Source: Gordonia sp. 'Campus' (GTDB lineage Bacteria; Actinomycetota; Actinomycetes; Mycobacteriales; Mycobacteriaceae). From it: a stretch of DNA of 64,000 nucleotides. Both the position numbers and the translations under genes were made by a program. The stretch is taken from contig NZ_JAKOIW010000012.1 in assembly GCF_022206305.1 (NCBI RefSeq), positions 62,001-126,000 of the forward strand. Direction: 5' to 3'. Within the stretch, counting starts at the first letter, position 1. Each line of letters starts with the position of its first letter. Positions 14,018 through 55,384 of the stretch are shown piece after piece. Below the pieces are notes generated by a model, which worked only from the letters and a program-made list of their open reading frames with translations, did no database searches and was not told where the DNA came from.

Positions 14018-15274
14018 CTACCCCCTCGCTGAGAACCGCTGCACCAGCCACCCTCCGATCTCCGCGGCGGCGAGGCTCGCGCCGGTCGGCGCCCCGCGGC
14101 GGATCGGACCGCCGAAATGGGTTCCCTCGACGCGGACGTGCGTGACATCGTCCGCGCCGAGGGCGTTCACCATCGCCACCGCATCCTCCGGGAAGCACGC
14201 CTGGTCGCCGGTCAGCTCGACGAACAGCGTGGGTACCCGGATACCGGGCGCGCAGCGGACGAATCCGGCGTTGCTGGACAGACCCGACCACGTCGACAGC
14301 CACGCGTCGGGGGTCGCCAGTCGGCCGAACCCGACCAGGCCGTAGTCCGTGAGGTCGGGTCGTCGACCGAACAGCGACCCGTACGGCCGGTCGTTGGGAC
14401 TCAGCGACTGATCCAGGAATCGAAGGTCGGCATCGGTGCGGTAGATCGTCATGACGCGAGGTGCGAGCGCGGCCCGGCGGTCGACCGGATCCGCGCTGGC
14501 GGCGAAACGCTCACGGGCGCGGCCGGTCTCGGCGACGAACTCGCGCGCGACGGCGTCGAGACGTTCGACGCGGGCACGTTGCGCGGCCCGGTACCTCTCG
14601 ACGAAATCCGCTGTATAAGAAGAGCTCTCCGGGGGTTCGGCATATCCGTTCGCCGGATCGAAGGGGTTGAGTGACGGGTCGACGCCGAGCGGATCGGCCT
14701 CGTCGACCACGGACGGGTCGATGAGGCGCAGCAGCAGTTCGCCCTGACCGGGGTGCGGGGCCAGGAAGATCGCACCGTCGGGCAACGGCATGTCGGCGCC
14801 GGCCAGGTCGACCGGCCGTCCGGCCGGGGTCGTCGACAATCGGTCGCCGGGGGCCAGGCCGGCCTGTTCGTGATAGAAGGCGAACAACGCGCCGCCACCC
14901 GAATGGCCCAGTGTGAGCACCGCTCCGAAGTCGCGCTCACGCAGGAACACCTGGCCGGCGGCGGCGTCGAGGATCGCCTGTTCGTGGATGAGGGTCAGAT
15001 CGTTGTTGACCGATCGGGTGCCCTGCGTCCACACGGCGAAGCCGCGGGAGAGCAGCTCCGGAACCAGGACATGGTGGGTGAGATCCTGACGCGGGTGCAT
15101 GAGTGCGACGACGACGGACGCCCCCGGGACGGTTCGTAGTACTCCGGTGACCTTGGCGCCGTCGGCGGTCGCCAGTTCGTGGACCGACGTCGAGGTGTCC
15201 GACGGTTGCTCGGCCGCCTCGATGTAGCGTCCGGCTCCCAGCCTGCTCGCGCCGGCGGTCGTGGTGGCACTCAC
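14018..15274 (-). CDS. Alpha/beta hydrolase, last gene of the maleate isomerase operon
   Basis: 418 residues starting at GTG 15274, whose GTGA overlaps the stop of the 81-residue gene upstream. An open frame runs to 15367, but the overlap start is favoured. The hydrolase core has VVALMHPRQDLTHH, the elbow LTLGHSGGGALFAFY, and a C-terminal LFVELTGDQACFPEDA then VEGTHFGGP providing Asp and His candidates. As the fourth gene behind maleate isomerase and a VOC dioxygenase it may cleave a ring-fission or acyl intermediate. That role is inferred from context only. Confidence 0.85.
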   Translation of the reverse strand: MSATTTAGASRLGAGRYIEAAEQPSDTSTSVHELATADGAKVTGVLRTVPGASVVVALMHPRQDLTHHVLVPELLSRGFAVWTQGTRSVNNDLTLIHEQAILDAAAGQVFLRERDFGAVLTLGHSGGGALFAFYHEQAGLAPGDRLSTTPAGRPVDLAGADMPLPDGAIFLAPHPGQGELLLRLIDPSVVDEADPLGVDPSLNPFDPANGYAEPPESSSYTADFVERYRAAQRARVERLDAVAREFVAETGRARERFAASADPVDRRAALAPRVMTIYRTDADLRFLDQSLSPNDRPYGSLFGRRPDLTDYGLVGFGRLATPDAWLSTWSGLSSNAGFVRCAPGIRVPTLFVELTGDQACFPEDAVAMVNALGADDVTHVRVEGTHFGGPIRRGAPTGASLAAAEIGGWLVQRFSARG

Positions 15275-15516
15275 CGTGCCTGGACCTTCAGTGCGTCTTT
15301 GTCCCACTGCGTGATCCGCGAATCGAGCAGACCCGCGACGCTGCTGTACCAGACGGCATGCCGACATCCGGTTGCACGCCGGTCGACGACGATGGCGTCG
15401 TCGGAGGTGATGCGGAAGTAGGGCCCGATGTGATCCACGGTGACACCCGGTGCCTCGCCGGCGACCGCGGCGACCGCCTTGTTCTCGGGGACGTCGAGCA
15501 CGAAGAACGTTGTCAT
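15271..15516 (-). CDS. Small cytosolic protein of unknown function (81 aa)
   Basis: 81 residues, MTTFFVLDVPENKAVA to DKDALKVQAR, locked between the VOC dioxygenase (ATGA overlap upstream) and the hydrolase (GTGA overlap downstream). The double overlap argues that it is a real co-translated gene. The sequence has a compact alpha/beta look with a central VTVDHIGPYFRITSDD and no catalytic motif I recognise. It could be a pathway-specific binding or subunit protein. Confidence 0.75.
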   Translation of the reverse strand: MTTFFVLDVPENKAVAAVAGEAPGVTVDHIGPYFRITSDDAIVVDRRATGCRHAVWYSSVAGLLDSRITQWDKDALKVQAR

Positions 15517-16175
15517 CGCGTCGACACCTCCCCGCCGGCGAGGACGCTGCCGGTCGTCTGTTGGTCCTGCCAGTCCGCTGCTCGCTCGAGGATCCGTTCC
15601 GCCTTGCGTACGAGCAGGGCGTCCATGGTCGGATTCGGCTGGGACACCACGTCGATGAGGGCCTCGATGGTGAGGTTGGCGTCGAGGTCTTCCTGCGGCG
15701 TCACCGGTCGCATGGCGCGGGTGATCTCGATCATGTAGCCGTTCGGGTCATGGGTGTAGATGGACTCGATGGTCTCGTGCTGGATCTGCATCTCGACCGG
15801 CCACTCACTCGCGTCGAGTCGTCGACGGTACTCCAACAGGTCCGTCTCGTCGTCGACATGGATGGCGAGGTGACGCGAGCGGATGAACCAGATCGGGACA
15901 TCCTCGGCGAACCGCGAGTACGAATCACCCTGGGGCCCACCGTCGAACGGCTCGAGTCCGAAATAGTAGAAGAAGGCGAGCCGGTCGTCGTTGCCGATGT
16001 CGAAGAAGAAGTGGATGAAGTCGGGGTGCTTGTCGGGTCCCCAGCCTGCGGCGCAGATCGAGTGCACCACGGGGAAGCCGAGGACGTCGCGGTAGAAGCG
16101 GACGGTGGCCGCCGGGTCGAAGGTGGGGTAGGCGACGTGGTCGACGCCGCGGACCTTGTGGGGGAGTGGGCTCAT
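15513..16175 (-). CDS. VOC-family dioxygenase/lyase
   Basis: 220 residues with the two beta-alpha-beta modules of vicinal-oxygen-chelate enzymes. A type I extradiol-like metal triad is readable: H13 in GVDHVAY, H102 in SRHLAIHV and E150 in GYMIEI. It is therefore probably an active metal enzyme and not a bleomycin-resistance-like binder. Aromatic residues line the middle (DFIHFFFDIGNDDRL). It lies between maleate isomerase and the 81-aa gene on one minus-strand operon, suggesting ring cleavage or a related step on a compound leading to maleate. Substrate not determined. Confidence 0.86.
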   Translation of the reverse strand: MSPLPHKVRGVDHVAYPTFDPAATVRFYRDVLGFPVVHSICAAGWGPDKHPDFIHFFFDIGNDDRLAFFYYFGLEPFDGGPQGDSYSRFAEDVPIWFIRSRHLAIHVDDETDLLEYRRRLDASEWPVEMQIQHETIESIYTHDPNGYMIEITRAMRPVTPQEDLDANLTIEALIDVVSQPNPTMDALLVRKAERILERAADWQDQQTTGSVLAGGEVSTR

Positions 16176-16200
16176 GAAGGGCTCCAGAAGAATCGGGGGC

Positions 16201-16230
16201 GGAGAAATAGGGGATGGAGAAATAGGGGAC
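16201..16230. repeat. 15-bp tandem duplication
   Basis: GGAGAAATAGGGGAT and GGAGAAATAGGGGAC lie head to tail in the 60-base gap between the maleate isomerase stop and the VOC start. One mismatch, at the last base. Confidence 0.85.
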
Positions 16231-16235
16231 GGGGA

Positions 16236-16991
16236 TCAGGCGGGGACGGTGGCGATGTCGGCACGCAGAAGGCTGCCGGCACCCTCGATGGATGCCGAGA
16301 GCCCGAGCCCGCGCAGGATGCTGTAGGCGCCGGCGGTCGCCGCCGACAAAACGGGCAGGCCGAACTCGCGCTCGGCGTCGTCGATCAGGCCCAGCGACGG
16401 CATCTGGACGCAGCAGGACAGCACCAGCGCGTCGACGCCGTCCAGTTCGAGGGACCGGGCCGCGGTCATGACCCGTTCGCCGGGGATGCACCCGACCTCG
16501 GCGTTGTCGGCGACTTCGAGCGCCCGCCAGTCCATCACCTCGAATCCCTCGGCGTCGAGGTACTCGACGACCTTCTCGGCGAGAGGCCGTAGGTACGGGG
16601 TGACGAGGGCGATGCGGCGGGCGTCCAGGGCCCGGAGGGCTTCGACGAGAGCACCGGCGCTGGACCGGATGATCGCCTCGGAGCCGCCGGCGGCGAGTTG
16701 TTCGGCCACGGCGCCCTCCACGCGCTGGTGTTCACCCGGCCCGCCGACCATCAGTGCGATGAGGCACGCGTAGAGGATCGCGTCGGGCGAGGCGTCGGCG
16801 ATCTCCAGCACGCACCGCTCGCGTTGGGCGTTCATCGCGGCGAGCTGTTCCGGCGACACGGTGTGCATTCTCATCCGGGTCGAGTGGAACGAGAACTCCG
16901 ACACCGGGTGCCGGTTGAGGAGGGCCGGCATCTCGGTCTCGACGGTGACGTTGGAGCTCGGCACCACGAGCCCGATGCGGTGAACACCCAT
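16236..16991 (-). CDS. Maleate cis-trans isomerase (Asp/Glu racemase superfamily)
   Basis: 251 residues. The opening GLVVPSSNVTVETEMP, the cysteine segments YACLIALM (C76) and LSCCVQMPSL (C194), and ALVTPYLRPLAEKVVEYL follow maleate isomerases. The published Nocardia farcinica enzyme uses C76 and C194, the same numbers found here. It converts maleate to fumarate without cofactor, the last step of nicotinate and some gentisate-type pathways. It is first gene of a minus-strand operon with its own promoter (17054-17082) and a GGA ribosome binding site. Arylmalonate decarboxylase or hydantoin racemase activity is less likely. Confidence 0.9.
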   Translation of the reverse strand: MGVHRIGLVVPSSNVTVETEMPALLNRHPVSEFSFHSTRMRMHTVSPEQLAAMNAQRERCVLEIADASPDAILYACLIALMVGGPGEHQRVEGAVAEQLAAGGSEAIIRSSAGALVEALRALDARRIALVTPYLRPLAEKVVEYLDAEGFEVMDWRALEVADNAEVGCIPGERVMTAARSLELDGVDALVLSCCVQMPSLGLIDDAEREFGLPVLSAATAGAYSILRGLGLSASIEGAGSLLRADIATVPA

Positions 16992-17053
16992 GGGCGGTCC
17001 TTTCGATTGCGGCGCAGATCGCGGCCGACGGCGTCACGTTGACGCTGACGACG

Positions 17054-17082
17054 ATTATTCGACGCATATGAAGATTCGTCAA
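17054..17082 (-). promoter_or_regulatory. Promoter of maleate isomerase operon
   Basis: On the minus strand TTGACG, a 17-base spacer and AATAAT form a near-consensus promoter; the expected start leaves a leader of about 55 bases. The bases before -10 (GTCGAATA) also occur at the opposing hyuA promoter. Confidence 0.65.
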
Positions 17083-17101
17083 GCGGCGCCGGTCGGCGCC
17101 G

Positions 17102-17151
17102 TGAGCTGCAGTGATGCCGAGACAGGGGACAATCATGGGTGACGCAGCTCA
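17102..17151. promoter_or_regulatory. Split inverted repeat between divergent promoters
   Basis: TGAGCTGC (17102-17109) and GCAGCTCA (17144-17151) are perfect inverted arms 42 bases apart centre to centre, about four helical turns. They lie between the two divergent promoters and could be a regulator site for the whole catabolic locus. Confidence 0.35.
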
Positions 17152-17161
17152 TATCCGATGC

Positions 17162-17190
17162 TTGACACCTGGTCGAACACGTCGAATACT
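17162..17190 (+). promoter_or_regulatory. Promoter of the HyuA operon
   Basis: TTGACA, 17 bases, AATACT; start expected near 17197, giving a leader of about 56 bases before ATG 17253. Confidence 0.68.
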
Positions 17191-17252
17191 CAACGCCAAC
17201 GTAAACAAGCCTGACGGGCCCCGCGGCCCGAACCACGAAGGAGTATCTGGCC

Positions 17253-19361
17253 ATGACATACGTGATCGGTGTGGACGTCGGCGGAACGTTCACCGACGCC
17301 GTCCTCGACGACGGCAACGGACTGGTGGTGGCCGGCAAGGCGCCTTCGACGCCGCCCGACTACTCCGCGGGGGTGATGGACGTCCTGACCGTCCTCGCCG
17401 AGCAACTCGGCCGCCCGCTCGACGACATGCTCGCCGACACCCACCACATCGCGCACGGCACCACGTCGTCGCTGAACGCGCTCGTCATGGGCCGGGTGCC
17501 GGACGTCGGATTCATCACGACCAAAGGGCATCGCGACTCGATCTTCATCATGAACGTGGAGGGACGCTACCTCGGACGTTCACCCGAGCAGCTGCAGAAC
17601 GTGCTCGCGCAGAGCAAGTCTCACGGGTTGATCCACAAACGTCATGCGCTCGAGGTCACCGAGCGCATGGACCGTGACGGTCGCGTCGTGGTCGCGCTGG
17701 ACGAGGACGAGGTGCGCGCTGCGGTCCGTCAGCTGCTCGACGACGGGATCACCGCAATCGCCGTCTCGCTGCTGTGGTCGTTCCGTAACCCCGCCCACGA
17801 ACGGCGGATTCGCGAGATCGTCGCCGAGATCGACCCCACCGTGTTCGTCTCGCTGTCGAGCGAGGTGAGTCCACGGATCCGGGAGTTCGCGCGCAACGCG
17901 ACCACGGTGATGAGCACCCAGATCGGTCCGGGCCTCCGGGACTACCTCGGCGAACTCGAGGGCAGGTTGCGCGACCATCAGCTCGCCGGTCCCCTCCTCG
18001 TGATGCAGAGCAACGGCGGCGCCGTCGCCGCGTCCGAAGCGCCGGGCAACGCCATCTCGACCGTCGGCTCGGTGCTGACCGGCGGGGTGGTCGGGTCGGT
18101 GTCACTCGGTCGGCAGCTCGGCCACGACAACATCATCGCCACCGACGCGGGCGGCACGACCTTCCTCGTCGGGCTCGTCGTCGACGGCGAGCCGGTCCGG
18201 TCGTCGACGACGATCATCAACCATCACCCGATCAACGTCCCGACGCTCGAGGTCCATGCGATCGGCGCCGGCGGCGGCGCGATCGCCTGGATCGATGCCG
18301 GCGGCAACCTCCAGATCGGACCCCACAGCGCGCAGGCCGTGCCGGGTCCGGCCTGCTATGGGCAAGGCGGGACCGAACCGACCAACACCGACGCCAACCT
18401 CGTCCTCGGCATCCTGCCCGAGCGCGGCTTGCTGGGTGGTCGCAAGGCGCTCGATCTGCAGCTCGCCCGCGAGGCGATCCGCACCCGCATCGCCGAACCC
18501 CTCGGCCTGTCGGTGGAAGAGGCCGCCGCCGCCATCTATGCGGTGCAGAACGCCCAGACCGGAGATCTGTTGCGCAAGACGGTCGTCGAGGCCGGTCACG
18601 ATCCCCGCAACTTCATCGTCTACGCGTTCGGCGGTTCGGGCCCGGCGCACTGCGGCCTGTACGCGCAGGAGATCGGGGTGTCCCGGGTCGTCGTACCGCT
18701 CGGTCAGGTGGCGTCCGCCTTCTCCGCCTACGGCCTGGCGTCGTCGAACATCGTTCTCGCCAAGGAACTCTCGGACCCGGCAGCGATGCCGGTCGACCCT
18801 GCCCGGGTGGAGGAGAACTTCAAGGTCCTCGAGGAACAGGTACGCGGTCAGCTCGACCGTCAGGGCCTGCAGTTCGCCGCCATCGAGATCGAGCGGGAGA
18901 TCGACATGCGATACAGCATGCAGCTGGCCGAGGTCGCGACCCCGCTACCCGACGGTTCGCTGACGTCGACGGAGATCGTCGCCGCCGCAGAGGCATTCGA
19001 GAAGAAGTACGCGGACCTCTACGGAAAGGACAGCGGATTCCGCGAGGCGGGCATCCAGGCCATCACCTACCGCGTACGCGGCACGGGTGTCCTCCCGTTC
19101 TCGCCGGAGCTGCCCGAACTGGCAACCTCCGACACCACCGACCCGTCGTCGGCCCACGTGGGTGTGCGCAAGGTCTGTCTCGACGGCCGGCGCGGCTTCG
19201 TCGACACCGACATCTACGACTATGCCGGACTGCGAGCGGGCCACATCATCCGTGGACCCGCCGTCATCGAGGTGCCCACCACGACGGTGGTGGTTCCGCA
19301 TGACACCACCGGTGAGACCGACCGTCTGGGCAACCTGAACATCACCGTCGATCCCGCATGA
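17253..19361 (+). CDS. HyuA-type subunit, carboxylase/oxoprolinase family
   Basis: 702 residues with GAAGGAG before the ATG. The N-terminal hydantoinase/oxoprolinase domain has the ATP-binding GVDVGGTFTDAVLDDG and the middle domain shows IATDAGGTTFLVGLV and GAGGGAIAWIDAGG, an acetate-kinase-type fold. FGGSGPAHCGLYAQEIG is conserved near residue 465. Homologues are the ATP-dependent beta subunits of acetone and acetophenone carboxylases, N-methylhydantoinase A and 5-oxoprolinase. Because the partner HyuB carries a carboxylase-gamma-like zinc domain, a carboxylase is the better guess, but the substrate is not readable. First gene of a five-gene operon. Confidence 0.9.
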   Translation: MTYVIGVDVGGTFTDAVLDDGNGLVVAGKAPSTPPDYSAGVMDVLTVLAEQLGRPLDDMLADTHHIAHGTTSSLNALVMGRVPDVGFITTKGHRDSIFIMNVEGRYLGRSPEQLQNVLAQSKSHGLIHKRHALEVTERMDRDGRVVVALDEDEVRAAVRQLLDDGITAIAVSLLWSFRNPAHERRIREIVAEIDPTVFVSLSSEVSPRIREFARNATTVMSTQIGPGLRDYLGELEGRLRDHQLAGPLLVMQSNGGAVAASEAPGNAISTVGSVLTGGVVGSVSLGRQLGHDNIIATDAGGTTFLVGLVVDGEPVRSSTTIINHHPINVPTLEVHAIGAGGGAIAWIDAGGNLQIGPHSAQAVPGPACYGQGGTEPTNTDANLVLGILPERGLLGGRKALDLQLAREAIRTRIAEPLGLSVEEAAAAIYAVQNAQTGDLLRKTVVEAGHDPRNFIVYAFGGSGPAHCGLYAQEIGVSRVVVPLGQVASAFSAYGLASSNIVLAKELSDPAAMPVDPARVEENFKVLEEQVRGQLDRQGLQFAAIEIEREIDMRYSMQLAEVATPLPDGSLTSTEIVAAAEAFEKKYADLYGKDSGFREAGIQAITYRVRGTGVLPFSPELPELATSDTTDPSSAHVGVRKVCLDGRRGFVDTDIYDYAGLRAGHIIRGPAVIEVPTTTVVVPHDTTGETDRLGNLNITVDPA

Positions 19362-19395
19362 CCGACCACCAGCAGCAACCACAGGAGTCGCTCTC

Positions 19396-21717
19396 ATGAC
19401 CGCACCCATTCCCGGCTCGGAGGTCTTCTCGAGCCGACCCACCGATCTCGACGCGCTGGCCCGATCCCTGCCGCCGTCGTTGCCGGTGCACACCGTCTCG
19501 CAGGAACAGATCGATGCACTCGACCCGCTCACGTACGAGGTGATCCGGCACCGGTTGTGGTCGGTCACCGACGAGATGGGTGAAGCCCTCAAACGGATGT
19601 CGGGATCGCCGATCGTGACCGATGCCAACGACTTCGACTTCGCCGTCAGCGACGAACTGGGCCAAGAGGTCCAGGTCGGGCTGTACAACACCATGCTGGT
19701 CGGCGCCGTGGACCTCGCGATCTACTGGACCCTGCAGCACCGTTCGCTCAATCCGGGCATCGCCGAGGGTGACATGTTCCTGTGCAACGACCCGTGGGTC
19801 GGTGGCGGACTGCATCAGAGCGATGTGATCGTCTACCAGCCCGTCTTCCACGACGGCAAGCTGTTCGCCTGGACGAGTGCGATCTGCCACGAGCCCGACC
19901 TCGGCGGATCCGGACTGGGCTCATTCGACCCGGCAGCCAAAGACGTGTTCTCCGAGTCGCTTCCGACGCCGCCCATCAAGGTTGTTCGCGATTACGAGCT
20001 GCAGCGCGACGTCGCCGACGTGTGGGTCCGGCGGAGTCGGGTCCCGATGCTCGTCGGGCTCGACCTGCGCGCCAAGATCGGTGCGAACAGTGTCGGAAGT
20101 GACCGGTTGCTCGCGGTCATCGAGCAGTACGGGGCAGACACGGTCAAGGCCGTCATGAAGCGGATGATGTCCGACGCCGAGGGGCGGCTGCGAACGAAGC
20201 TGTCCGACCTGCCGGACGGCACCTGGCATGCCACCGGGTACCAGGACCAGTCCCAGACCGGCGACCGCGGTGTCCACAAGATCACCGTCGCCATGACAAA
20301 GACAGATGACCACCTCGAGTTCGACTTCACCGGTACCGACCCGCAGACGGGCGTCATCAACTGCACGTACGCGGGCATGCGCGGCGGGGTGATGCTGGCG
20401 CTGCTCCCCATCCTCGCCGGTGACATCCCCTGGTCGGCAGGCGGTCTGATGCGATGCTTCGATCTGGTGGCCGAGGAGGGGACGATCAACAACGCGACCT
20501 TCCCGGCCGCGGTGAGCCGCGGACCGATCGGCCCGGCCTGGCTCACCGGCAACCTGATCGCGGAGTGTCTGGCCCAGATGTTGGACCGCCACCTCGAGTT
20601 CGGCAAGAACGTGCAGGCGTCGTGTTGCGGTACGTGGGACACCGCGGTGGTCGCGGGCCTCGACGAGCGCGGTGAGCAACCGGTGCCGTTCCTCAACATC
20701 ATGATGGAGCCGATGGCCGGCGGGTACGGAGCGAGGCCGGTCGCCGACGGTATGGACACCGGTGGCCTGTTCTGCATCCCGATGGGGCGCATCCCCGACA
20801 CCGAGATGACGGAGTTCCTCTACCCGCTGCTCACCCTGTGGCGCCGGGAGGAGCCCGACTCCGGCGGCCCGGGGCGGCATCGCGGCGGTGTGTCGGCGTC
20901 GTTGGCCGTGACGCCGTACGGCACCAGTTTGCCGATGGGACTCGTGTTCGCCTCGGCGGGCAAGGCGGTGGCCCAGAACTCCGGGTTGGCGGGCGGCCTG
21001 CCCGGCAACACCGGCCTGGAGATTCTCGCGCGTGATTCGGGTGTGCAGGAGTTGTTGGCACAGGGGCGGATTCCCGGTTCGATGGACGAACTGGCCGGGA
21101 ACAAGGAGATCGGCGCGTGCTACGACGAGAGTTACCTCGCCCCCGGTGAGGTGCTGTACATGCACTGGCAGGGCGGGGGCGGTTATGGCGACCCGTTGCA
21201 CCGCGAGCCGGAAGCCGTGGCGACGGACGTGCGCAACGGCAAAGTGACCCTCGCCGGTGCCGAGGAGACGTACGGCGTCGTACTCGCCGACGGCCGGGTC
21301 GACGACTCGCGGACCGAGGAGAAGCGGGCACAATTGCGCGAGATTCGCCGAAACCGCTCGGAGCTCCCGTCCGGACAAGAGGCGACCCTGGACCTGGATC
21401 GCGCCCGACGTCTGGACGACAACCTGGTCGAGGCCACGATCGGCGATGCCCGCGTCGTGGGCTGCGCACACTGCGGAAGGCTGTTGGGCGACAGCAAGTC
21501 CGGCCGGCTCGACCTGGCACGCTACGACGGCCCGTCGAGCGACGCCGGTCCGCAGGTCACCTCCGATCCCCGCGAATACGTCGACACCGACGTGGTGTTC
21601 CGGCAGCAGTGCTGCCCGGGGTGCTTCACGGCCGTCTACTCAGGCATCGTGCCGGTCGACCATCCCGACCACATCGCCGAGCTCGCGCAACTGCTCCCAG
21701 CGGTGGCGGGTCGATGA
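19396..21717 (+). CDS. HyuB-type subunit fused to an acetone-carboxylase-gamma-like zinc domain
   Basis: 773 residues, longer than plain HyuB. Residues 1 to about 630 are hydantoinase B: LWSVTDEMGEALKRMSGSP, GDMFLCNDPWVGGGLH, and GPGRHRGGVSASL at the usual place. After a linker the last ~110 residues carry VGCAHCGRLLG (C690, C693) and FRQQCCPGCFTAVYS (C739, C740, C743). This zinc-ribbon pattern resembles the separate gamma subunit of acetone carboxylase. The fusion would supply all three carboxylase subunits in two genes. It starts 34 bases after HyuA, and its TGA overlaps the ligase ATG (ATGA). Family certain, reaction inferred. Confidence 0.9.
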   Translation: MTAPIPGSEVFSSRPTDLDALARSLPPSLPVHTVSQEQIDALDPLTYEVIRHRLWSVTDEMGEALKRMSGSPIVTDANDFDFAVSDELGQEVQVGLYNTMLVGAVDLAIYWTLQHRSLNPGIAEGDMFLCNDPWVGGGLHQSDVIVYQPVFHDGKLFAWTSAICHEPDLGGSGLGSFDPAAKDVFSESLPTPPIKVVRDYELQRDVADVWVRRSRVPMLVGLDLRAKIGANSVGSDRLLAVIEQYGADTVKAVMKRMMSDAEGRLRTKLSDLPDGTWHATGYQDQSQTGDRGVHKITVAMTKTDDHLEFDFTGTDPQTGVINCTYAGMRGGVMLALLPILAGDIPWSAGGLMRCFDLVAEEGTINNATFPAAVSRGPIGPAWLTGNLIAECLAQMLDRHLEFGKNVQASCCGTWDTAVVAGLDERGEQPVPFLNIMMEPMAGGYGARPVADGMDTGGLFCIPMGRIPDTEMTEFLYPLLTLWRREEPDSGGPGRHRGGVSASLAVTPYGTSLPMGLVFASAGKAVAQNSGLAGGLPGNTGLEILARDSGVQELLAQGRIPGSMDELAGNKEIGACYDESYLAPGEVLYMHWQGGGGYGDPLHREPEAVATDVRNGKVTLAGAEETYGVVLADGRVDDSRTEEKRAQLREIRRNRSELPSGQEATLDLDRARRLDDNLVEATIGDARVVGCAHCGRLLGDSKSGRLDLARYDGPSSDAGPQVTSDPREYVDTDVVFRQQCCPGCFTAVYSGIVPVDHPDHIAELAQLLPAVAGR

Positions 21718-23429
21718 CGGTGACCTCCACCCCCGAGCGATCGTCGGCCCGGACTCCGGGACCTGGTCGGTCACGCTGGGGCGACCGACTGGTCGGGTAC
21801 CCGGCGGACCGCGCCGCGGTCTACCGGCAGGCGGGTGAGTGGACCGACCGTCCGCTGGCTCGACGTCTACAGGACACCGTCGACCGCTTCCCCGATCGTC
21901 CCGCCGTGGTGACCGATGTGGCCTCGATGACATACGCCGAGTTGGGAACCCGCACCGATCGGATCGCGGCGGGACTGCTCGATCTCGGCCTGGTACCCGG
22001 CGACCCGGTGCTCTTCCAGACCGGGAACAGGATCGAGACGGTCCTCGTCTGGTACGGATGTGTCAAAGCGGGGCTGGTGCCGGTGGCGACGCTGGCGGCG
22101 CACCGTGCGCACGAGATCGGCCACATCTCCCGTGCGGTCGGCGCGGTCGGACACGTCGTCGAGGCCGGACTCGGTTTCGACCTCGTCGAGTTCGCGCGGC
22201 AGCAGGCCCAGGGCCACCCGACGCTGCGCTCCATCCTCACGGTCGGCGCAGTCGGCGGTGAGGATGGAACGCACCCGGTGGAGACCCTCGGGGCCGACAC
22301 CCCGCCGGCGGAGGCGCGAGCGCGGGTCGAGTCGGTCCAGTCCGGCATCGACCCGCTCGACGTCTGCGCGTTCCAGTTGTCGGGCGGCACCACCGGTGTG
22401 CCGAAGGTGATCCCACGTCTGCACGTCGAGTACTGGGACAACGCCCTGCTGTACGCACGGCGTCTGGGGTGGACCGAGGAGACGCGCGTCGCGCACCTGA
22501 TCCCGATCATCCACAACGCGGGCATCAGCTGTGGACTTCATGCCGCGCACTCGGTGGGAGCTTGTCTCGTCCTCGCGACCGCGGACGTGTCGAAGGCGTT
22601 CCCGCTCATGGCACGGGAACGGGCGACGGATGTCCTGATCGGACACGGGCACTATCAGGCCGTCGCCGGCCCCGAGTTCGACGAGCCGAGCGCGTTCCTG
22701 CGCAACGTCATCCTGTCCGGCGCCAAGCCCGGTCGCGAGCTCTTCGACCGGGCCGGTGGCCGAACACGCTGGGTCGGACAGCTTTTCGGGATGTCCGAAG
22801 GCATGTTCACGGTCTCTCCCCGGAACGCTCCGGAGGAGTCGCGGCTGACCACGGTCGGCACCCCGATCGCCTCGCGAGACGAGATCCGGATTCTCGAACC
22901 CGGCTCGGAGGTCGAGGTGGCCGACGGTGAGGTCGGCGAGCTGTCCTGCCGGGGTCCGTACACGATCCCCGGTTACTTCGACGCACGCGAACACAACCGG
23001 GCCGCGTTCACGACCGACGGCTTCTACCGGACCGGGGATCTCGCGAAGGTCGTGCTCGTCGACGGCGAGCGCCATGTCTCCGTCGAGGGGCGAATCAAGG
23101 ACCTCATCAATCGCGGTGGCGAGAAGATCAACGCCGAGGAGATCGAACAGCTGCTCGTGACCCATCCGCGGGTGCGCAACGCCGCCGTCGTCGCCATGCC
23201 CGACCCGAGGCTGGGTGAGCGGACGTGCGCATACCTGGTCACCGCGGACGGCGAGCCGGTGTCGATGGCGAGTGTTCGCGCACACCTCGAAGAGCTGGGC
23301 GTGGCCAAGTTCAAGTGGCCCGAGCGGCTCGAGCACGTACCGGAACTACCTCAGACGAACGTCGGGAAGATCGACAAGAAGCGCCTCCGCGCCGACGTCG
23401 TGGCGAAGCTCGAGCGAACTGATCAGTGA
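21714..23429 (+). CDS. Aryl-acid-AMP ligase (2,3-dihydroxybenzoate/salicylate-type)
   Basis: 571 residues from ATG 21714, coupled to HyuB by an ATGA overlap. The adenylation signature is QLSGGTTGVPKVIPRLH, with GQLFGMSEGMFTVSP, YRTGDL and GRIKDLINRGGEKINAEEIE following in order. The C-terminal catalytic lysine sits in TNVGKIDKKRLR. The N-terminus (LVGYPADRAAVYRQAGEW) and the INRGGEKI form are typical of stand-alone DhbE/EntE and salicylate-AMP ligases. It would activate an aromatic or heteroaromatic acid with ATP, passing it to CoA or a carrier; no carrier protein is nearby, so CoA is likelier. Beside a flavin monooxygenase this recalls the SdgA/SdgC salicylate route. Confidence 0.88.
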   Translation: MTVTSTPERSSARTPGPGRSRWGDRLVGYPADRAAVYRQAGEWTDRPLARRLQDTVDRFPDRPAVVTDVASMTYAELGTRTDRIAAGLLDLGLVPGDPVLFQTGNRIETVLVWYGCVKAGLVPVATLAAHRAHEIGHISRAVGAVGHVVEAGLGFDLVEFARQQAQGHPTLRSILTVGAVGGEDGTHPVETLGADTPPAEARARVESVQSGIDPLDVCAFQLSGGTTGVPKVIPRLHVEYWDNALLYARRLGWTEETRVAHLIPIIHNAGISCGLHAAHSVGACLVLATADVSKAFPLMARERATDVLIGHGHYQAVAGPEFDEPSAFLRNVILSGAKPGRELFDRAGGRTRWVGQLFGMSEGMFTVSPRNAPEESRLTTVGTPIASRDEIRILEPGSEVEVADGEVGELSCRGPYTIPGYFDAREHNRAAFTTDGFYRTGDLAKVVLVDGERHVSVEGRIKDLINRGGEKINAEEIEQLLVTHPRVRNAAVVAMPDPRLGERTCAYLVTADGEPVSMASVRAHLEELGVAKFKWPERLEHVPELPQTNVGKIDKKRLRADVVAKLERTDQ

Positions 23430-23439
23430 GGAAGAAACG

Positions 23440-25071
23440 ATGAAACTCAGTCGAATCGCCGTGCTCGGTGGCGGTCCGGGTGGGCTGTACGCAGCGCGCC
23501 TGCTCAAGCGAAGCCACCCCGATGCCGAGGTGACCGTGTACGAACAGGGCTCGCCCGACACCACTTTCGGATTCGGCGTCGGCCTGGCGTCTCGGACCCA
23601 ACGCAACCTCCGCCAGGCCGATCCCGACTCGCTCGACGCGATCGTCGCCGTGTCACATCCGCACGAGATGTCGATGCGGGTAGGCGACCATGTGGCGCGC
23701 CTGTCGCACGGCGAGCTGCTTGCGATCGCACGGACGACGCTGCTGGAGGTGCTGCAGGACCATGCCACGGCCGCGGGTGTGCGGTTGGAGTTCGGCGCGC
23801 GCAGGTCGGTCGCCGACCTCGACGCCGATCTCATCGTCGCCGCCGACGGCGTCAACAGCGCCACCCGCACCGATCTCGCCGACGACCTGGGTCCGGCCAT
23901 CAGTACCGGCGAAGGCCTGTACCTCTGGTGCGGAACGGACTTCGCGTTGCCGAGTGCCATCTTCACGCCGGTGACCACCGAACACGGCACCTTCGTCGCC
24001 CACGCCTACCCGTATGCGTCGGACCGCAGCACGTTCCTGATCGAGACGGACGAGACCACCTGGCGTCGAGCGGGTTTCGACGTCTCGACCGAGGCTACGG
24101 GCGTCGCCGACAGCGACGAGACCGCACTGGCCTATCTCCAGGAAGCGTTCGCGGACGCGCTCGACGGTCATCGTCTCATCGGCAACCGAACCCGGTGGCT
24201 GCGCTTTCGCACCGTGACGTGCAACCGGTGGCACACCGGAAACGTCGTGCTGCTCGGGGATGCGGCGCACACCGCGCACTACTCGATCGGGTCGGGAACC
24301 AAACTCGCGATGGAGGACGCGATCGAGCTCGACCGCGCGGTGCGGCATGCGACGACGCTCGACGAGGCCCTGTCGGCCTACGAATCGGCGCGGCGGCCGA
24401 ATGTCGAATACCTGCAGTCGATAGCGACCCGGAGCGAGCAGTGGTGGGAATCGTTCCCGCGTCGTGCGGACATGCCGGTGGACCAGCTGATGATCGCCTA
24501 CATGACCCGCGCGGGGAAGGTGGGGATCGACCGCTTCGCGGCCTCGGCACCCGAGGTGGCCCGGCGAGGTCTGGCCGCCTACGCCGACGTCGATCCCGCG
24601 TCCGTCCCCGACGCCGCGACCGCGCAGTGGATCGTCGCACAACCGCTGGTACGCGGACCGTGGTCCTTCCCGAGCCGTGGAGCCCCCGTGCAGCTGCGTT
24701 CCGAGCCCGGAACCCTGCGGCTCGACGTGGATGTCGACTCCGCGTGGGGCCCAGGGGCAGGACGTCTGGTCGCCGAGGCGGCGCACGCGACCGTCGTGTG
24801 GTTGACCGGGCGTGGCGATCGCGACGCGGTGCTGACCAGACTCGACGTCGGGGAGCGCCTGCGTCGGGAGACCGGCGCTCTCGTCGTCGTCGAGGCTCCG
24901 GGCAGCTCGTACGACGATCTCGTCGCCGGTCTGGTGAGCCTCCGCGCCGATCTGGTGTTCGTGACCGACGCGGCCGTGGCGGATGAAGCTGTGGGGGATG
25001 GCGCTGCGGTGGATGAACTGCGCGAGGTGGAACGGAACACCGAGGCCGAACGCACTATTCTTCGCCTATGA
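23440..25071 (+). CDS. FAD monooxygenase, aryl-CoA hydroxylase-like, with short C-terminal extension
   Basis: 543 residues from ATG 23440 with GAGGAAG ahead; the longer open frame upstream is an out-of-phase shadow of the ligase. Residues 1 to ~400 form a group A flavoprotein monooxygenase: RIAVLGGGPGGLYAARLLK for FAD ADP, LIVAADGVNSATR for NAD(P)H/FAD, and NVVLLGDAAHTAHYSIGSGTK. This resembles the N-terminal half of salicylyl-CoA 5-hydroxylase and anthraniloyl-CoA monooxygenase. In those enzymes an old-yellow-enzyme barrel follows; here only about 140 residues remain, ending LRRETGALVVVEAPGSSYDD and LVSLRADLVFV, which look like the last strands of such a barrel. Its stop overlaps the TetR start. 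Confidence 0.85.
   Translation: MKLSRIAVLGGGPGGLYAARLLKRSHPDAEVTVYEQGSPDTTFGFGVGLASRTQRNLRQADPDSLDAIVAVSHPHEMSMRVGDHVARLSHGELLAIARTTLLEVLQDHATAAGVRLEFGARRSVADLDADLIVAADGVNSATRTDLADDLGPAISTGEGLYLWCGTDFALPSAIFTPVTTEHGTFVAHAYPYASDRSTFLIETDETTWRRAGFDVSTEATGVADSDETALAYLQEAFADALDGHRLIGNRTRWLRFRTVTCNRWHTGNVVLLGDAAHTAHYSIGSGTKLAMEDAIELDRAVRHATTLDEALSAYESARRPNVEYLQSIATRSEQWWESFPRRADMPVDQLMIAYMTRAGKVGIDRFAASAPEVARRGLAAYADVDPASVPDAATAQWIVAQPLVRGPWSFPSRGAPVQLRSEPGTLRLDVDVDSAWGPGAGRLVAEAAHATVVWLTGRGDRDAVLTRLDVGERLRRETGALVVVEAPGSSYDDLVAGLVSLRADLVFVTDAAVADEAVGDGAAVDELREVERNTEAERTILRL
25056..25061 (+). promoter_or_regulatory. Putative internal -10 for leaderless TetR transcript
   Basis: TATTCT then six bases then ATG 25068, located inside the end of the monooxygenase gene. 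It would let the regulator be made independently of the operon. Confidence 0.4.
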
Positions 25072-25814
25072 CCAGCTCGACCCCCCAGGAATCGTCCACG
25101 CCAGGTGGGCGGAGTGGACGCAGCAATTCTCGTCGTGAGCTGGTCGAACGCGAGATCATGGAGCAGGCGACCCGGTTGTTCGCCGAGCGCGGGCTGGCCA
25201 GCACCACGCTGCAGGACATCGCCGACGCCACCGGTCTCACCCGCCCGGCGCTCTATCACTATGTGGCCAACAAGGACGAACTGTTCGCCCGGCTGGTCAG
25301 CGAGATCGCCGAGGAACCGGCGATCCTGCTGCACGAGATCAATCAGCGCACGGATCTCGACCCCGTCGGGAAGGTCCACGAGATGGCGATGTCCATCGCA
25401 CTCCACCAGACCCAGACCCTGGACCGGTTCCGTCTCCTCATCCGGTCGGAGGCCGAGCTGCCGCCGGCTCTGGCCGAGACCTACCGCCAGAGCCGCCGGC
25501 GGGTCCTCAAAGAGCTGGTCGCGGTCGTCGAGGAGGGGATCGCCCAGGGAAGGTTCCGTCCCGCCGATCCGCGGGTCTCCGCGCTCGGAATCATCGGAAT
25601 GCTGAATTGGCTTGCCTGGTGGCATCATCCGGGCGATGCCGAGTCCGATCGCAAGGTCGCGCGGCAACTCGCCGACATGGCGGTCAATACGGTGGTCGAT
25701 CCGGAAGCGGACACCGCGGTCTCCGGGGCCGATCGCCTCATCGCCCAGATGCGGCAGAACCTGGATTACCTGGAGCGGGAGGTCCGGGAGCGCACGTCAC
25801 CCCCGGCTCCCTGA
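25068..25814 (+). CDS. TetR-family regulator of the catabolic operon
   Basis: 248 residues. A disordered Ser/Pro N-terminus is followed by the HTH: EQATRLFAERGLASTTLQDI and TGLTRPALYHYVANKDELFA. The ligand domain has LDRFRLLIRSEAELPPALAE, typical of TetR_C proteins. It is last gene of the HyuA operon (ATGA overlap) and may repress its own promoter region at 17054-17190, possibly through the split repeat there. Its stop codon lies in the first unit of a 32-bp tandem repeat. Confidence 0.92.
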   Translation: MTSSTPQESSTPGGRSGRSNSRRELVEREIMEQATRLFAERGLASTTLQDIADATGLTRPALYHYVANKDELFARLVSEIAEEPAILLHEINQRTDLDPVGKVHEMAMSIALHQTQTLDRFRLLIRSEAELPPALAETYRQSRRRVLKELVAVVEEGIAQGRFRPADPRVSALGIIGMLNWLAWWHHPGDAESDRKVARQLADMAVNTVVDPEADTAVSGADRLIAQMRQNLDYLEREVRERTSPPAP

Positions 25815-26043: not shown

Positions 26044-26715
26044 TCAGATGCGGCCGAACTCCGTCATCGCGTCGGCGAGGGTCATACCGTTGCGGATCGC
26101 CGCACGGACGTCGATTTCCTTGTCCGTCATGGTCTCGGCGGCCTCGAGCACGACGTCGACGAGCGCGGCGGGGATGACGATGACACCGTCGTCGTCGCCG
26201 AGGATGAAGTCCCCGGGTTCGATGACGACCGGTTGCCCGGACGCGCCCGGCAGGGTGACGGACTGCTGCCACGCGCTGACGCGCCAGCGGCCGCTGGTCT
26301 GGACCGACGTCGGGTAGCGCGAAAATGTCGTGAAGCCGATCTCGTGCAGCCATTTCCGGTCGCGGACACCGCCGTCGAGCACTGCGCCGGGGGAACCCCG
26401 CTGCATCATCCCGATCGCGACGAGTTCACCGAAGTAGCAGACACCACGTCCGTTCCCCTCCCACACCGAGACCTCGTCCGGGCCGATCTCGTTGCACGCC
26501 TGCGCTTTCAGCGGGTCCCGACCCGGCTCGTCGCTCATCGCGCCCGAGATGGTGAACGCCCACCCGGCCAGGCGTTCGCGCCCCGCCACGCAGGTGAAGT
26601 CGGTCCCGAGCGCCTGATCACGGTGGCCGAGGTCGTCGAGGACATCGGCGACATTGGCGACGTCGACGGCGAGGAACCGGGAACGGATGAGTGCGCGGTC
26701 GGTGGTTGTACGCAT
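26044..26715 (-). CDS. RraA-like aldolase/decarboxylase (HMG/CHA aldolase superfamily)
   Basis: 223 residues starting at ATG 26715, which overlaps the TctA stop (ATGA). VLDGGVRDRKW and GDFILGDDDGVIVIPAALV are the substrate-arginine and metal-site motifs of the RraA-like fold. In this family they belong to 4-hydroxy-4-methyl-2-oxoglutarate / 4-carboxy-4-hydroxy-2-oxoadipate aldolases and oxaloacetate decarboxylases, not to the RNase E regulator. The fifth and last gene of the tricarboxylate-transporter operon, it probably cleaves a tricarboxylate-derived or branched keto acid to pyruvate. Start chosen over the longer open frame because of the overlap. Confidence 0.88.
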   Translation of the reverse strand: MRTTTDRALIRSRFLAVDVANVADVLDDLGHRDQALGTDFTCVAGRERLAGWAFTISGAMSDEPGRDPLKAQACNEIGPDEVSVWEGNGRGVCYFGELVAIGMMQRGSPGAVLDGGVRDRKWLHEIGFTTFSRYPTSVQTSGRWRVSAWQQSVTLPGASGQPVVIEPGDFILGDDDGVIVIPAALVDVVLEAAETMTDKEIDVRAAIRNGMTLADAMTEFGRI

Positions 26716-28220: not shown

Positions 28221-28783
28221 CAGAACAGCCCTCCCAGGATGCCGGCGGGCAGATTCAGACCGAGGCCCGCGGAGAAGAACGCCTGCACGGCACAGGAGAC
28301 GACGAGGGACACCCCGATGTCGAGAATCGGGCGGGTGGAACCCATGGCGTGGGCGACCATCCAGAACAGCAGTGCGGCGGACAGGATCCAACCCAGAGGG
28401 ATCAGCAGCACGGTGAAGGCGATGAGTCCGGCCAGGACGAGACCCATTGCACGCCAATCGCTCTGCGTGCGCCACTGTCCGGCCGCGGGTGGCACGATGT
28501 CGGGATCGGGCTCGTCGGGGTTCCGGAGCGTCTGCACGGTCAGGAGACCGGCGACGAGGTAGGCGCAGATCGTCAGGATGATCGGGAAGAACGCCGGTCC
28601 GGGAGTGGCCGCGCTTCCCGGGATCTCCATGCCGATGATTCCGACGGTCAGGTAGATGGCGAGCGCGAGCATCAGGCCCGCGACGACCAGACCGCTCCGT
28701 CCGGTGAGGGGTCGGCGGGCGCGCACCGGTCCGTCGTCGAACGACGTGTCGGCGGGCTGGGCCGCCGCGTTGTCAGTCGTCAT
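28220..28783 (-). CDS. tctB: Tripartite tricarboxylate transporter small membrane subunit
   Basis: 187 residues with four hydrophobic segments (LVVAGLMLALAIYLTVGIIG, FFPIILTICAYLVAGLLTV, two near the C-terminus), the TctB layout, and a hydrophilic N-terminus of about 30 residues. It overlaps the universal stress protein gene by 11 bases and TctA by 4. Confidence 0.9.
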   Translation of the reverse strand: MTTDNAAAQPADTSFDDGPVRARRPLTGRSGLVVAGLMLALAIYLTVGIIGMEIPGSAATPGPAFFPIILTICAYLVAGLLTVQTLRNPDEPDPDIVPPAAGQWRTQSDWRAMGLVLAGLIAFTVLLIPLGWILSAALLFWMVAHAMGSTRPILDIGVSLVVSCAVQAFFSAGLGLNLPAGILGGLF

Positions 28784-29171: not shown

Positions 29172-29230
29172 GGTGTCTCCGTGATGTCGGGTGAGGCAGG
29201 GGTTGTGCGGTGGAGGTCCGGAGTCGTCGG

Positions 29231-53669: not shown

Positions 53670-53730
53670 CCCGCATCAGACCGCGAAGCCTGTCTCACAA
53701 CATCTTTCACTACGACGTAAGGACCTCACC

Positions 53731-55358: not shown

Positions 55359-55384
55359 ACCCCCCGATCAAGACAGGGATCACC

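What the first reader, a model, noticed from the sequence alone, without database searches (positions are those of the whole stretch)
15271..25814. Candidate undescribed aromatic/heteroaromatic acid pathway built around a carboxylase-like HyuAB and ending in maleate
Divergent, tightly coupled operons encode maleate isomerase with C76/C194, a VOC dioxygenase with an intact metal triad, an 81-aa protein and a hydrolase on one side, and HyuA, HyuB with zinc domain, aryl-AMP ligase, aryl-CoA-hydroxylase-like monooxygenase and TetR on the other. Maleate isomerase says the end product is maleate then fumarate. Ligase plus monooxygenase recall the salicylyl-CoA route. No known nicotinate or gentisate gene set matches this composition, and the carboxylation or ring-hydrolysis step by HyuAB is unexplained.
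Basis: partly seen in the sequence, partly recalled or inferred. Interest (0 to 1): 0.78.

Follow-up and report, generated by a model that had tools for sequence, protein, structure and literature searches.

The report
Conserved pathway turning aromatic acids to fumarate
A set of nine genes that soil actinobacteria keep together and probably switch on together seems to break an ortho-hydroxylated aromatic acid down to maleate and fumarate, using an unusual small helper protein on its ring-opening enzyme and an ATP-driven enzyme whose job is still unknown.

Summary
All nine genes are present. Of 73 related actinobacterial loci with full flanks, 57 carry all nine, in six gene orders. A 27-bp promoter-like element occurs exactly twice in the 5.1 Mb genome, once before each divergent operon; in 80 related loci, 88 of 89 sites precede hyuA, MI or MO. 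So this looks like one regulon.

The core is ligase, FAD hydroxylase, VOC enzyme plus 81-aa protein, hydrolase and maleate isomerase; it also occurs in Proteobacteria without HyuAB. Best reading: ortho-hydroxyaryl acid to aryl-CoA, hydroxylation to a 2,5-dihydroxyaryl acid, ring cleavage by VOC, hydrolysis to maleate, isomerisation to fumarate. VOC's nearest solved relative by sequence is titled a homogentisate 1,2-dioxygenase.

New here: the 81-aa protein has the MmoB/DmpM effector fold, lies directly behind VOC in 76 of 77 loci, and is fused to it in five of five Burkholderiales. Five of twelve such genomes show no diiron hydroxylase for it to serve. HyuB carries a four-cysteine tail like that of ketone carboxylases.

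HyuAB's substrate and direction (carboxylase or hydrolase) are unproven. No chemistry was measured.

The parts
14018..15274 (-). HYD: alpha/beta-hydrolase-like enzyme, 418 aa (GTG start), candidate triad Ser125/Asp357/His386
   Evidence: no Pfam or NCBIfam family; the three residues are invariant in 26 of 26 aligned rows, three of them from Proteobacteria; only weak profile matches to esterases and monoglyceride lipases, E 0.028 and above
15271..15516 (-). p81: small effector-like protein of MmoB/DmpM fold, partner of VOC
   Evidence: AF2 model pLDDT 89; Foldseek ranks 1-34 are all MmoB/DmpM/T4moD-type effector proteins, best E 1.8e-3; Pfam MmoB_DmpM in 10 of 35 homologues at E<=0.01, best 2.1e-4; fused to VOC in 5 of 5 Burkholderiales
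15513..16175 (-). VOC: VOC-fold, probably ring-cleaving dioxygenase, 220 aa
   Evidence: H13/H102/E150 plus H133/Y140 invariant; best solved relative by sequence 9U42, E 5.4e-9, titled homogentisate 1,2-dioxygenase
16236..16991 (-). MI: maleate cis-trans isomerase, Cys76/Cys194
   Evidence: 429 bits to 2XEC, 425 to 2XED; cysteines present
17056..17082 (-). promoter/operator-like element TTGAC-N13-CGTCGAATA of the MI-VOC-p81-HYD operon
   Evidence: one of exactly 2 matches in the genome, reversed control 0; conserved in relatives
17162..17188 (+). same element, before the hyuA-hyuB-LIG-MO-tetR operon
   Evidence: second of the 2 matches
17253..19361 (+). [quoted passage not shown]
   Evidence: Pfam Hydantoinase_A; phosphate motifs present; nearest solved: N-methylhydantoinase 376 bits and ApcC 373 bits
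19396..21717 (+). HyuB: beta subunit with fused C-terminal four-cysteine (gamma-like) domain, 773 aa
   Evidence: Pfam Hydantoinase_B 43-600; C690/C693/C740/C743; tail profile aligns its four Cys with ApcB 5L9W_C, E 0.23, rank 2
21714..23429 (+). LIG: aryl-acid adenylating ligase of the salicylate/2,3-DHB-AMP ligase type, 571 aa
   Evidence: best solved relative is salicylate-AMP ligase 5WM2, E 1.6e-96; Asn268, the putative ortho-group contact, in 99 of 100 rows
23440..25071 (+). MO: FAD aryl-CoA-hydroxylase-like monooxygenase with an extra C-terminal region, 543 aa
   Evidence: salicylyl-CoA 5-hydroxylase model 336 bits, curated cut-off 1078; VioD best solved
25068..25814 (+). TetR-family regulator, possible regulator of both operons
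   Evidence: Pfam TetR_N and TetR_C_24; present in 72 of 73 loci

Best explanation
One regulon for complete breakdown of an ortho-hydroxyaryl acid (salicylate-type). (1) HyuAB uses ATP to produce the acid, more likely by carboxylating a phenol- or ketone-type precursor than by opening a cyclic amide. (2) LIG adenylates the acid and makes the CoA thioester. (3) MO hydroxylates the ring para to the ortho oxygen, giving a gentisyl-type CoA; a thioesterase (separate gene in Proteobacteria, unidentified here) frees the 2,5-dihydroxyaryl acid. (4) VOC with its effector subunit p81 cleaves the ring next to the carboxyl-bearing carbon, giving a maleyl-2-oxo acid such as maleylpyruvate. (5) HYD hydrolyses this to maleate plus pyruvate (or acetoacetate if the intermediate is homogentisate). 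(6) MI isomerises maleate to fumarate. Shown by sequence: gene set, co-occurrence, shared promoter-like element, enzyme families, conserved catalytic residues, predicted p81 fold and its fusion to VOC in relatives. Inferred: every substrate and product, the order of steps, and the direction of HyuAB. Rough step confidences: core acid-to-fumarate scheme 0.65; p81 acts on VOC 0.75; HyuAB is upstream and is a carboxylase 0.4.
For: Co-occurrence of the nine families. Shared element unique to the two operons and found before hyuA (37), MI (35) or MO (16) in 88 of 89 sites. LIG is closest to salicylate-AMP ligases and keeps the ortho-group Asn in 99 of 100 rows; the exception is a second, distant ligase copy in L057. 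MO is closest to the salicylyl-CoA 5-hydroxylase model. VOC has the extradiol-type residues in 92 of 92 rows, and its best solved relative by sequence is titled homogentisate 1,2-dioxygenase, which implies a maleyl-type product. MI is a close homologue of a solved maleate isomerase. The own genome has no match to gentisate 1,2-dioxygenase. p81 fold, fusion, and lack of a PF02332 partner in 5 of 12 genomes. HyuB gamma-like cysteines, a feature that PMC5214803 reports as conserved in Apc and Acx, while Hyd lack gamma.
Against: No substrate, product or activity is known. HyuA scores nearly equally with N-methylhydantoinase and ApcC, and the best NCBIfam models are caprolactamase subunits, below cut-off. 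The nearest HyuAB outside these clusters in a 396-genome sample (58-60% identical, L126) lacks the cysteine domain and sits among meta-cleavage-like genes. The gamma match is E 0.23, not significant on its own and behind an unrelated rank 1 at E 0.012; Acetone_carb_G is reached by only 4 of 27 tails, best E 0.021, and other zinc-binding models score as well or better. 16 of 73 loci carry a transporter family whose one tested member resembles aromatic-acid/H+ symporters below cut-off, so an acid may be taken up directly. No thioesterase family recurs in the HyuAB-bearing loci. LIG pocket residues differ from salicylate ligases (Ala for Phe next to the Asn). In one search the control Corynebacterium glutamicum also matches gentisate dioxygenase only below the cut-off, so missing the cut-off is weak evidence in actinobacteria; two of the 12 genomes have 268-273 bit matches. 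The 9U42 fold match has low TM (0.31), and VOC folds are functionally diverse.
Confidence: 0.5

Rival explanations
1. HyuAB is an ATP-dependent hydrolase that opens a cyclic amide or imide fused to or attached to the ring, unmasking the ortho-substituted aryl acid that LIG then activates. The rest of the pathway runs as in the best explanation.
For: HyuA and HyuB score best against caprolactamase subunit models (512 and 226 bits); HyuB's best solved relative is 6YRA, listed as hydantoinase; the nearest outside relative lacks the cysteine domain.
Against: The four-cysteine pattern is present in 66 of 66 full-length HyuB; PMC5214803 (section 7 read) states that gamma is absent in any Hyd complex. 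All NCBIfam matches are below their cut-offs. No tenth family, hence no nitrogen-handling gene, is conserved in the clusters.
Confidence: 0.3
2. The true intermediate is homogentisate: 2-hydroxyphenylacetate is activated, 5-hydroxylated, released and cleaved to maleylacetoacetate, which HYD splits into maleate and acetoacetate.
For: VOC's nearest solved relative is titled homogentisate 1,2-dioxygenase. A Rhodococcus globerulus strain is suggested to metabolise 2-hydroxyphenylacetate through homogentisate (PMC11889516, passages seen).
Against: LIG's nearest solved relatives are benzoate-type (salicylate/DHB) adenylating enzymes. The passages of PMC11889516 report HmgA and HmgB, not this gene set, in 2-hydroxyphenylacetate-grown cells.
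Confidence: 0.15
3. A pyridine-type acid is degraded through a dihydroxypyridine to maleamate and then maleate, with HyuAB or HYD removing the nitrogen.
For: Maleate isomerase is the last step of the nicotinate maleamate route (recalled knowledge); LIG's conserved Asn could also face a ring nitrogen (inference).
Against: Only nine families recur above 16 of 73 loci, without a second amidase candidate. MO and LIG match salicylate-type enzymes. No direct search for the nicotinate genes was made.
Confidence: 0.08
4. p81 is an effector for another enzyme, for example a diiron monooxygenase elsewhere in the genome or MO, and its place next to VOC is incidental.
For: The MmoB/DmpM-type structures belong to diiron methane, phenol and toluene monooxygenases; 7 of 12 genomes, the own genome included, do encode PF02332 hydroxylases.
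Against: 5 of 12 genomes have neither PF02332 nor a PF02406 match; VOC-p81 fusion in 5 of 5 Burkholderiales; directly downstream of VOC in 76 of 77 loci.
Confidence: 0.12

Closest known systems
Salicylyl-CoA / gentisate pathway (SdgABCD type, Streptomyces WA46; names recalled)
   Same: Aryl-AMP ligase plus salicylyl-CoA-5-hydroxylase-like FAD enzyme
   Different: No gentisate 1,2-dioxygenase match in the own genome; ring cleavage assigned to VOC plus p81; maleate produced and isomerised; HyuAB added
VOC-fold homogentisate 1,2-dioxygenase (PDB 9U42, Acinetobacter; title only, no paper read)
   Same: Best sequence match (E 5.4e-9); metal and catalytic His/Tyr residues paired in the printed alignment
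   Different: About 25% identical and shorter; whether it has an effector partner was not examined
Acetophenone / acetone carboxylases (Apc, Acx)
   Same: HyuA and HyuB core plus a gamma-like four-cysteine domain; a CoA ligase gene follows, as benzoylacetate-CoA ligase does for Apc (PMC5214803)
   Different: Gamma-like domain fused to beta; no alpha' or epsilon gene; scores below the NCBIfam cut-offs
Caprolactamase / hydantoinase / 5-oxoprolinase (Hyd)
   Same: Two-gene HyuAB layout; best NCBIfam scores
   Different: Hyd enzymes lack gamma (PMC5214803)
MmoB/DmpM/T4moD effector proteins
   Same: Fold: ranks 1-34 of the PDB search
   Different: No diiron hydroxylase in the cluster; paired with or fused to a VOC enzyme
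Maleate isomerase 2XEC/2XED
   Same: Close homologue along the full length, Cys76 and Cys194
   Different: None seen; activity not tested

Membership tests
Maleate isomerase | Cys76 and Cys194 and full-length homology to a solved maleate isomerase | tested here: met
   catalytic role of the cysteines recalled
Salicylyl-CoA/gentisate pathway | salicylate-type AMP ligase | tested here: met
   by homology; substrate not tested
Salicylyl-CoA/gentisate pathway | salicylyl-CoA 5-hydroxylase at curated cut-off | tested here: not met
   336 of 1078 bits; that model describes a bifunctional enzyme, and only its FAD part is matched
Salicylyl-CoA/gentisate pathway | gentisate 1,2-dioxygenase (TIGR02272) | tested here: not met
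   own genome no match at E<=0.001; 4 of 12 VOC-bearing genomes match, none over cut-off, two at 268-273 bits; the control Corynebacterium glutamicum is also below cut-off
Ketone carboxylase (Apc/Acx) | gamma subunit with four conserved Cys | tested here: inconclusive
   four-Cys pattern in 66 of 66 as a fusion; ApcB match E 0.23 with the Cys aligned; Acetone_carb_G sub-threshold in 4 of 27
Ketone carboxylase (Apc/Acx) | Apc alpha' and epsilon subunits, or a separate gamma gene | tested here: not met
   no such gene among the recurrent families
Ketone carboxylase / hydantoinase family | ATP phosphate motifs in the alpha subunit | tested here: met
   first motif in 64 of 65, second in 64 of 65; the adenosine-motif Gly is Gln in 58 of 65
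Ketone carboxylase | bicarbonate-dependent carboxylation | not testable with these tools
   needs enzyme assay
Extradiol-type VOC dioxygenase | 2-His-1-Glu triad and catalytic His/Tyr (residue roles recalled) | tested here: met
   92 of 92 rows; activity not tested
MmoB/DmpM effector | fold | tested here: met
   TMq 0.72-0.78 in ranks 1-29; no match reaches E 0.001
MmoB/DmpM effector | Pfam PF02406 gathering score | tested here: not met
   19.2 of 25 bits for the window protein
MmoB/DmpM effector | works with a diiron hydroxylase | tested here: not met
   none in the cluster; 5 of 12 genomes have no PF02332 match, 7 of 12 do

The most novel reading that the evidence does not exclude
Two new things at once. 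First, VOC-p81 is a ring-cleaving mononuclear dioxygenase controlled by an MmoB-type effector, a partnership known to me only from diiron monooxygenases. Second, HyuAB is an aerobic ATP-dependent ortho-carboxylase of phenol-type compounds: a ketone carboxylase phosphorylates an enol oxygen and carboxylates the neighbouring carbon, and on a phenol that would give exactly the ortho-hydroxybenzoate that LIG resembles enzymes for. The cluster would then be a carboxylate-first aerobic phenol pathway.
Probability: 0.15. Interest if true: 0.9.

Novelty: new variant of a known kind. Interest (0 to 1): 0.72.

Why it matters
A catabolic regulon spread through soil actinobacteria, with a core shared by Proteobacteria, has no described function that my searches could find. 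It offers a testable case of an oxygenase effector protein working outside diiron enzymes, and of a beta-gamma-like fusion in the hydantoinase/ketone carboxylase family. If HyuAB carboxylates phenols, it would be a new aerobic way to fix CO2 onto aromatics, of use in biocatalysis.

Tried and rejected
Considered and rejected or downgraded: chance neighbourhood (against it); TctABC/RraA block at 26044-30277 as part of the system (not next to the cluster in the one long related locus checked for it, L133); classical gentisate gene set; p81 as helper of a diiron hydroxylase; MI as EutA or arylmalonate decarboxylase (82 and 80 bits, cut-offs 318 and 225).

Led nowhere: ten paper searches listed no paper that I recognised as describing this gene set; they cover only open-licence PMC papers, and nearly all listed papers were seen as titles and abstract starts only. 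Passages were read in PMC5214803 (plus its section 7), PMC8453981, PMC13101512 (no hydantoinase, maleate or AMP ligase term found) and PMC11889516. A phylum-wide sample of 396 genomes found VOC only in the own genome. Two promoter pattern searches with the wrong spacing returned 0 in the window and genome and were repeated with the spacing read from the sequence, so the pattern was fitted to this locus; a loosened form was then used in the relatives, and its test is where those sites lie. A further pattern for the longer block matched only the hyuA side. HYD gave no informative structure match. The gene caller or the clustering missed HYD in 3 loci and p81 in 3 loci where tblastn finds them. 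Of the five loci counted without hyuA and hyuB, three (L076, L078, L081) begin inside MO, so HyuAB may lie beyond the edge. Redundancy: some genomes were fetched twice (L002-L012 overlap L013-L092 and L133-L143), and a few of the 80 loci are from the same or near-identical strains (such as L074/L075 and L086/L088), so row counts are not counts of independent genomes. Alignments A1 to A5 are hand-picked subsets for spread (A1 26 relatives, A2 34, A3 25, A4 28, A5 27).

Full report
What was checked. The hydrolase lies just outside them, at 14018-15274. The two operons diverge from a 261-nt gap and are tightly packed: HyuB/LIG, MO/TetR, VOC/p81 and p81/HYD overlap by 4 nt. The window is 66-70% G+C, and its closest relatives in the VOC scan are Gordonia strains, so it is probably a Gordonia-like actinobacterium.

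Is it one system? A scan of named bacterial genomes with VOC kept the best 80 of 183 relatives. Of these 80 loci, 73 have at least 9 kb on both sides. In those 73: VOC 73, tetR 72, MO 72, LIG 71, MI 70, HYD 70, p81 70, hyuB 68, hyuA 66; all nine in 57; the next family, an MFS transporter, in 16. Six misses are gene-caller or clustering misses (compare) and some are locus edges. The 57 complete loci show six gene orders, eight if two rows with a doubled label are counted apart, so the association survives rearrangement. Some loci come from near-identical strains, so the number of independent cases is smaller. Distribution is patchy: 12 of 298 sampled genomes of the order have VOC at E <= 1e-20, and no other genome of the window's genus in that sample has it.

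Shared control. Aligning the gap between hyuA and MI in 11 loci showed two conserved blocks, one in front of each operon. Both read TTGAC-N13-CGTCGAATA. In the window there are two matches and none in 100 shuffles; in the whole 5.1 Mb genome there are the same two and none with the reversed pattern. In the 80 relatives (1.6 Mb) a slightly looser form gives 89 sites in 55 loci, 33 loci with two or more, reversed control 0; 37 lie before hyuA, 35 before MI, 16 before MO, 1 unassigned; 25 loci have none. This speaks for common control of both operons, though no expression was measured. That TetR binds the element is inference.

The core without HyuAB. Thirteen plasmid stretches around VOC relatives were compared by tblastn. 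All six core families (LIG, MO, VOC, p81, HYD, MI) are found in 8 of 13: Tsukamurella, Cupriavidus, Variovorax, Pseudosulfitobacter, Tistrella, two Caballeronia and Paraburkholderia. The other five lack one or more: Rhodococcus USK13 and Streptomyces chartreusis lack a full MO, Mycobacterium avium and Rhodococcus qingshengii lack MI, Streptomyces NBC_01450 lacks LIG, HYD and MI in the stretch. HyuA and HyuB match in 0 of 13. In Variovorax, Pseudosulfitobacter and Tistrella a small thioesterase gene sits between or beside LIG and MO; the Variovorax one matches the YbgC/FadM model below its cut-off, and the Pseudosulfitobacter one matches no NCBIfam model. Proteobacterial MO proteins lack the C-terminal region of about 160 residues found in the window's MO (alignments in four of them end at residues 371-381); the R. 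qingshengii MO lacks it too.

Activation and hydroxylation. LIG is nearest to salicylate-AMP ligase 5WM2 (E 1.6e-96), then to 2,3-dihydroxybenzoate-AMP ligase and PchD. The Asn that, from recalled work on DhbE, contacts the ortho group is kept in 99 of 100 rows, 93 of 94 distinct sequences; the exception is a second ligase in L057. The neighbouring residue, Phe in the solved relatives, is Ala in 98 of 100, so the exact substrate may not be plain salicylate. MO scores best with the salicylyl-CoA 5-hydroxylase model, 336 of 1078 bits; that model also contains a second enzyme, so the score shows kinship only.

Ring cleavage. VOC keeps H13, H102, E150, H133 and Y140 in 92 of 92 rows; in 18 further rows, four from Proteobacteria and ten re-fetched from genomes already counted, 17 have all five and one has a gap at the first. 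Its best solved relative by sequence is 9U42 (E 5.4e-9), listed as a glyoxalase and titled homogentisate 1,2-dioxygenase from Acinetobacter. The printed alignment pairs the metal ligands and the His and Tyr. In the fold search 9U42 is also first by E-value (7.5e-10), but its TM-score is only 0.31, and biphenyl-diol dioxygenases and methylmalonyl-CoA epimerases also match; the fold alone is not decisive. Cleavage of a 2,5-dihydroxyaryl acid gives a maleyl compound (general knowledge), which would explain why the pathway ends with a maleate isomerase. The usual gentisate 1,2-dioxygenase has no match in the own genome and in 8 of 12 VOC-bearing genomes; 4 of 12 match below the cut-off, two of them at 268-273 bits, and the control Corynebacterium glutamicum also stays below the cut-off, so those two may well be real.

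The 81-aa protein. Pfam gives only a sub-threshold MmoB_DmpM hint for the window copy (19.2 of 25 bits), and for 10 of 35 homologues at E <= 0.01, best 2.1e-4, with no other family. A profile search of the PDB lists only toluene 4-monooxygenase effector chains, at E 1.4-1.7. The predicted structure is good (pLDDT 89). The first 34 fold matches are all methane monooxygenase, phenol hydroxylase or toluene 4-monooxygenase effectors, TM 0.72-0.78 in ranks 1-29, best E 1.8e-3; in the rest of the 50 shown, TM does not exceed 0.44. It is directly downstream of VOC in 76 of 77 loci, overlapping in 75. In five of five Burkholderiales examined the two are one open frame without a stop between them; in Tistrella, Pseudosulfitobacter and Tsukamurella they are separate. 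Five of 12 genomes have neither a PF02332 diiron hydroxylase nor a PF02406 match, while 7 of 12, the own genome included, have both. The simplest reading is that p81 is a subunit of the VOC enzyme. One paper search for such a pair listed nothing relevant.

Hydrolase and isomerase. HYD matches no curated family; Ser125, Asp357 and His386 are invariant in 26 of 26 rows. It is assigned the hydrolytic split that releases maleate by its place in the scheme, not by assay. MI is a close homologue of the solved maleate isomerase 2XEC.

HyuAB. HyuA carries each phosphate motif in 64 of 65 relatives, while the Gly of the adenosine motif given in PMC8453981 (passages) is Gln in 58 of 65, Gly in one, and six do not match the pattern. 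A strict pattern for the beta-subunit metal ligands is found in 49 of 66 HyuB. The C-terminal CxxC...CxxC pattern is in 66 of 66. PMC5214803 reports a four-cysteine zinc finger in the gamma subunit of Apc and Acx and no gamma in hydantoinases. A profile of this tail puts ApcB second in the PDB at E 0.23 with all four Cys aligned, behind an unrelated aminotransferase-like protein at E 0.012; this is not significant as a blind search, but it was the one relative expected beforehand. Among Pfam models Acetone_carb_G is reached by 4 of 27 tails, best E 0.021, and other zinc-binding models score as well or better. Against a carboxylase: the best NCBIfam models are caprolactamase subunits, below cut-off, and the nearest outside HyuAB in a 396-genome sample, 58-60% identical, lacks the tail and lies among meta-cleavage-like genes. 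Two more distant HyuAB pairs with a fused tail sit near CoA-ligase, thiolase, CaiB-type or amidohydrolase-like genes (L127, L129; names mostly from inspection, not from a family scan). I put carboxylase at 0.4 and hydrolase at 0.3.

Verdict. The system is real and conserved. Its closest known kin is the salicylyl-CoA/gentisate route, from which it differs in the likely ring-cleaving enzyme, the effector-like subunit, the maleate exit and HyuAB. I therefore call it a new variant of a known kind. No chemistry has been measured.

Noticed in passing
window 26044-30277 (-): RraA-like protein (26044-26715) with tripartite tricarboxylate transporter genes TctA and TctC, two small genes between them, and a GntR/FCD regulator at 30532-31212; next to the cluster here but not in L133.
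   Followed up: partly
window 45805-48418 and 52308-57933 (+): DmmA-like and haem-dependent oxidative N-demethylase genes, then glutamine synthetase-like, glutamate-synthase-like and FAD oxidoreductase genes: probably methylated-amine catabolism.
   Followed up: no
window 24577-25071 (+), MO C-terminus: The monooxygenase has about 160 extra residues with no significant Pfam match to its last 123 residues and a conserved tail ending ERTILRL; the Proteobacterial relatives lack it, and three of them have a thioesterase gene instead. Whether the region replaces the thioesterase is unknown.
   Followed up: partly
window 18327-18362 (+), HyuA adenosine motif: The Gly of the GxxPGP motif is Gln in 58 of 65 HyuA of this cluster, while outside relatives L126, L127, L129 and L130 have Gly.
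   Followed up: partly
L126 (8335-12452): HyuAB 58-60% identical to the window's, without the cysteine tail, in a cluster with meta-cleavage-like genes; what it supplies to that pathway is unclear.
   Followed up: partly
   Followed up: no
L095 (13468-17369): On a Mycobacterium avium plasmid the VOC-p81 pair follows a cytochrome P450 and reductase, with HYD and LIG about 11 kb away.
   Followed up: no
L061, L069, L078, L085: A cytochrome P450 gene (family F10) lies inside the cluster in these loci, which could feed in an O-demethylated or hydroxylated substrate.
   Followed up: no
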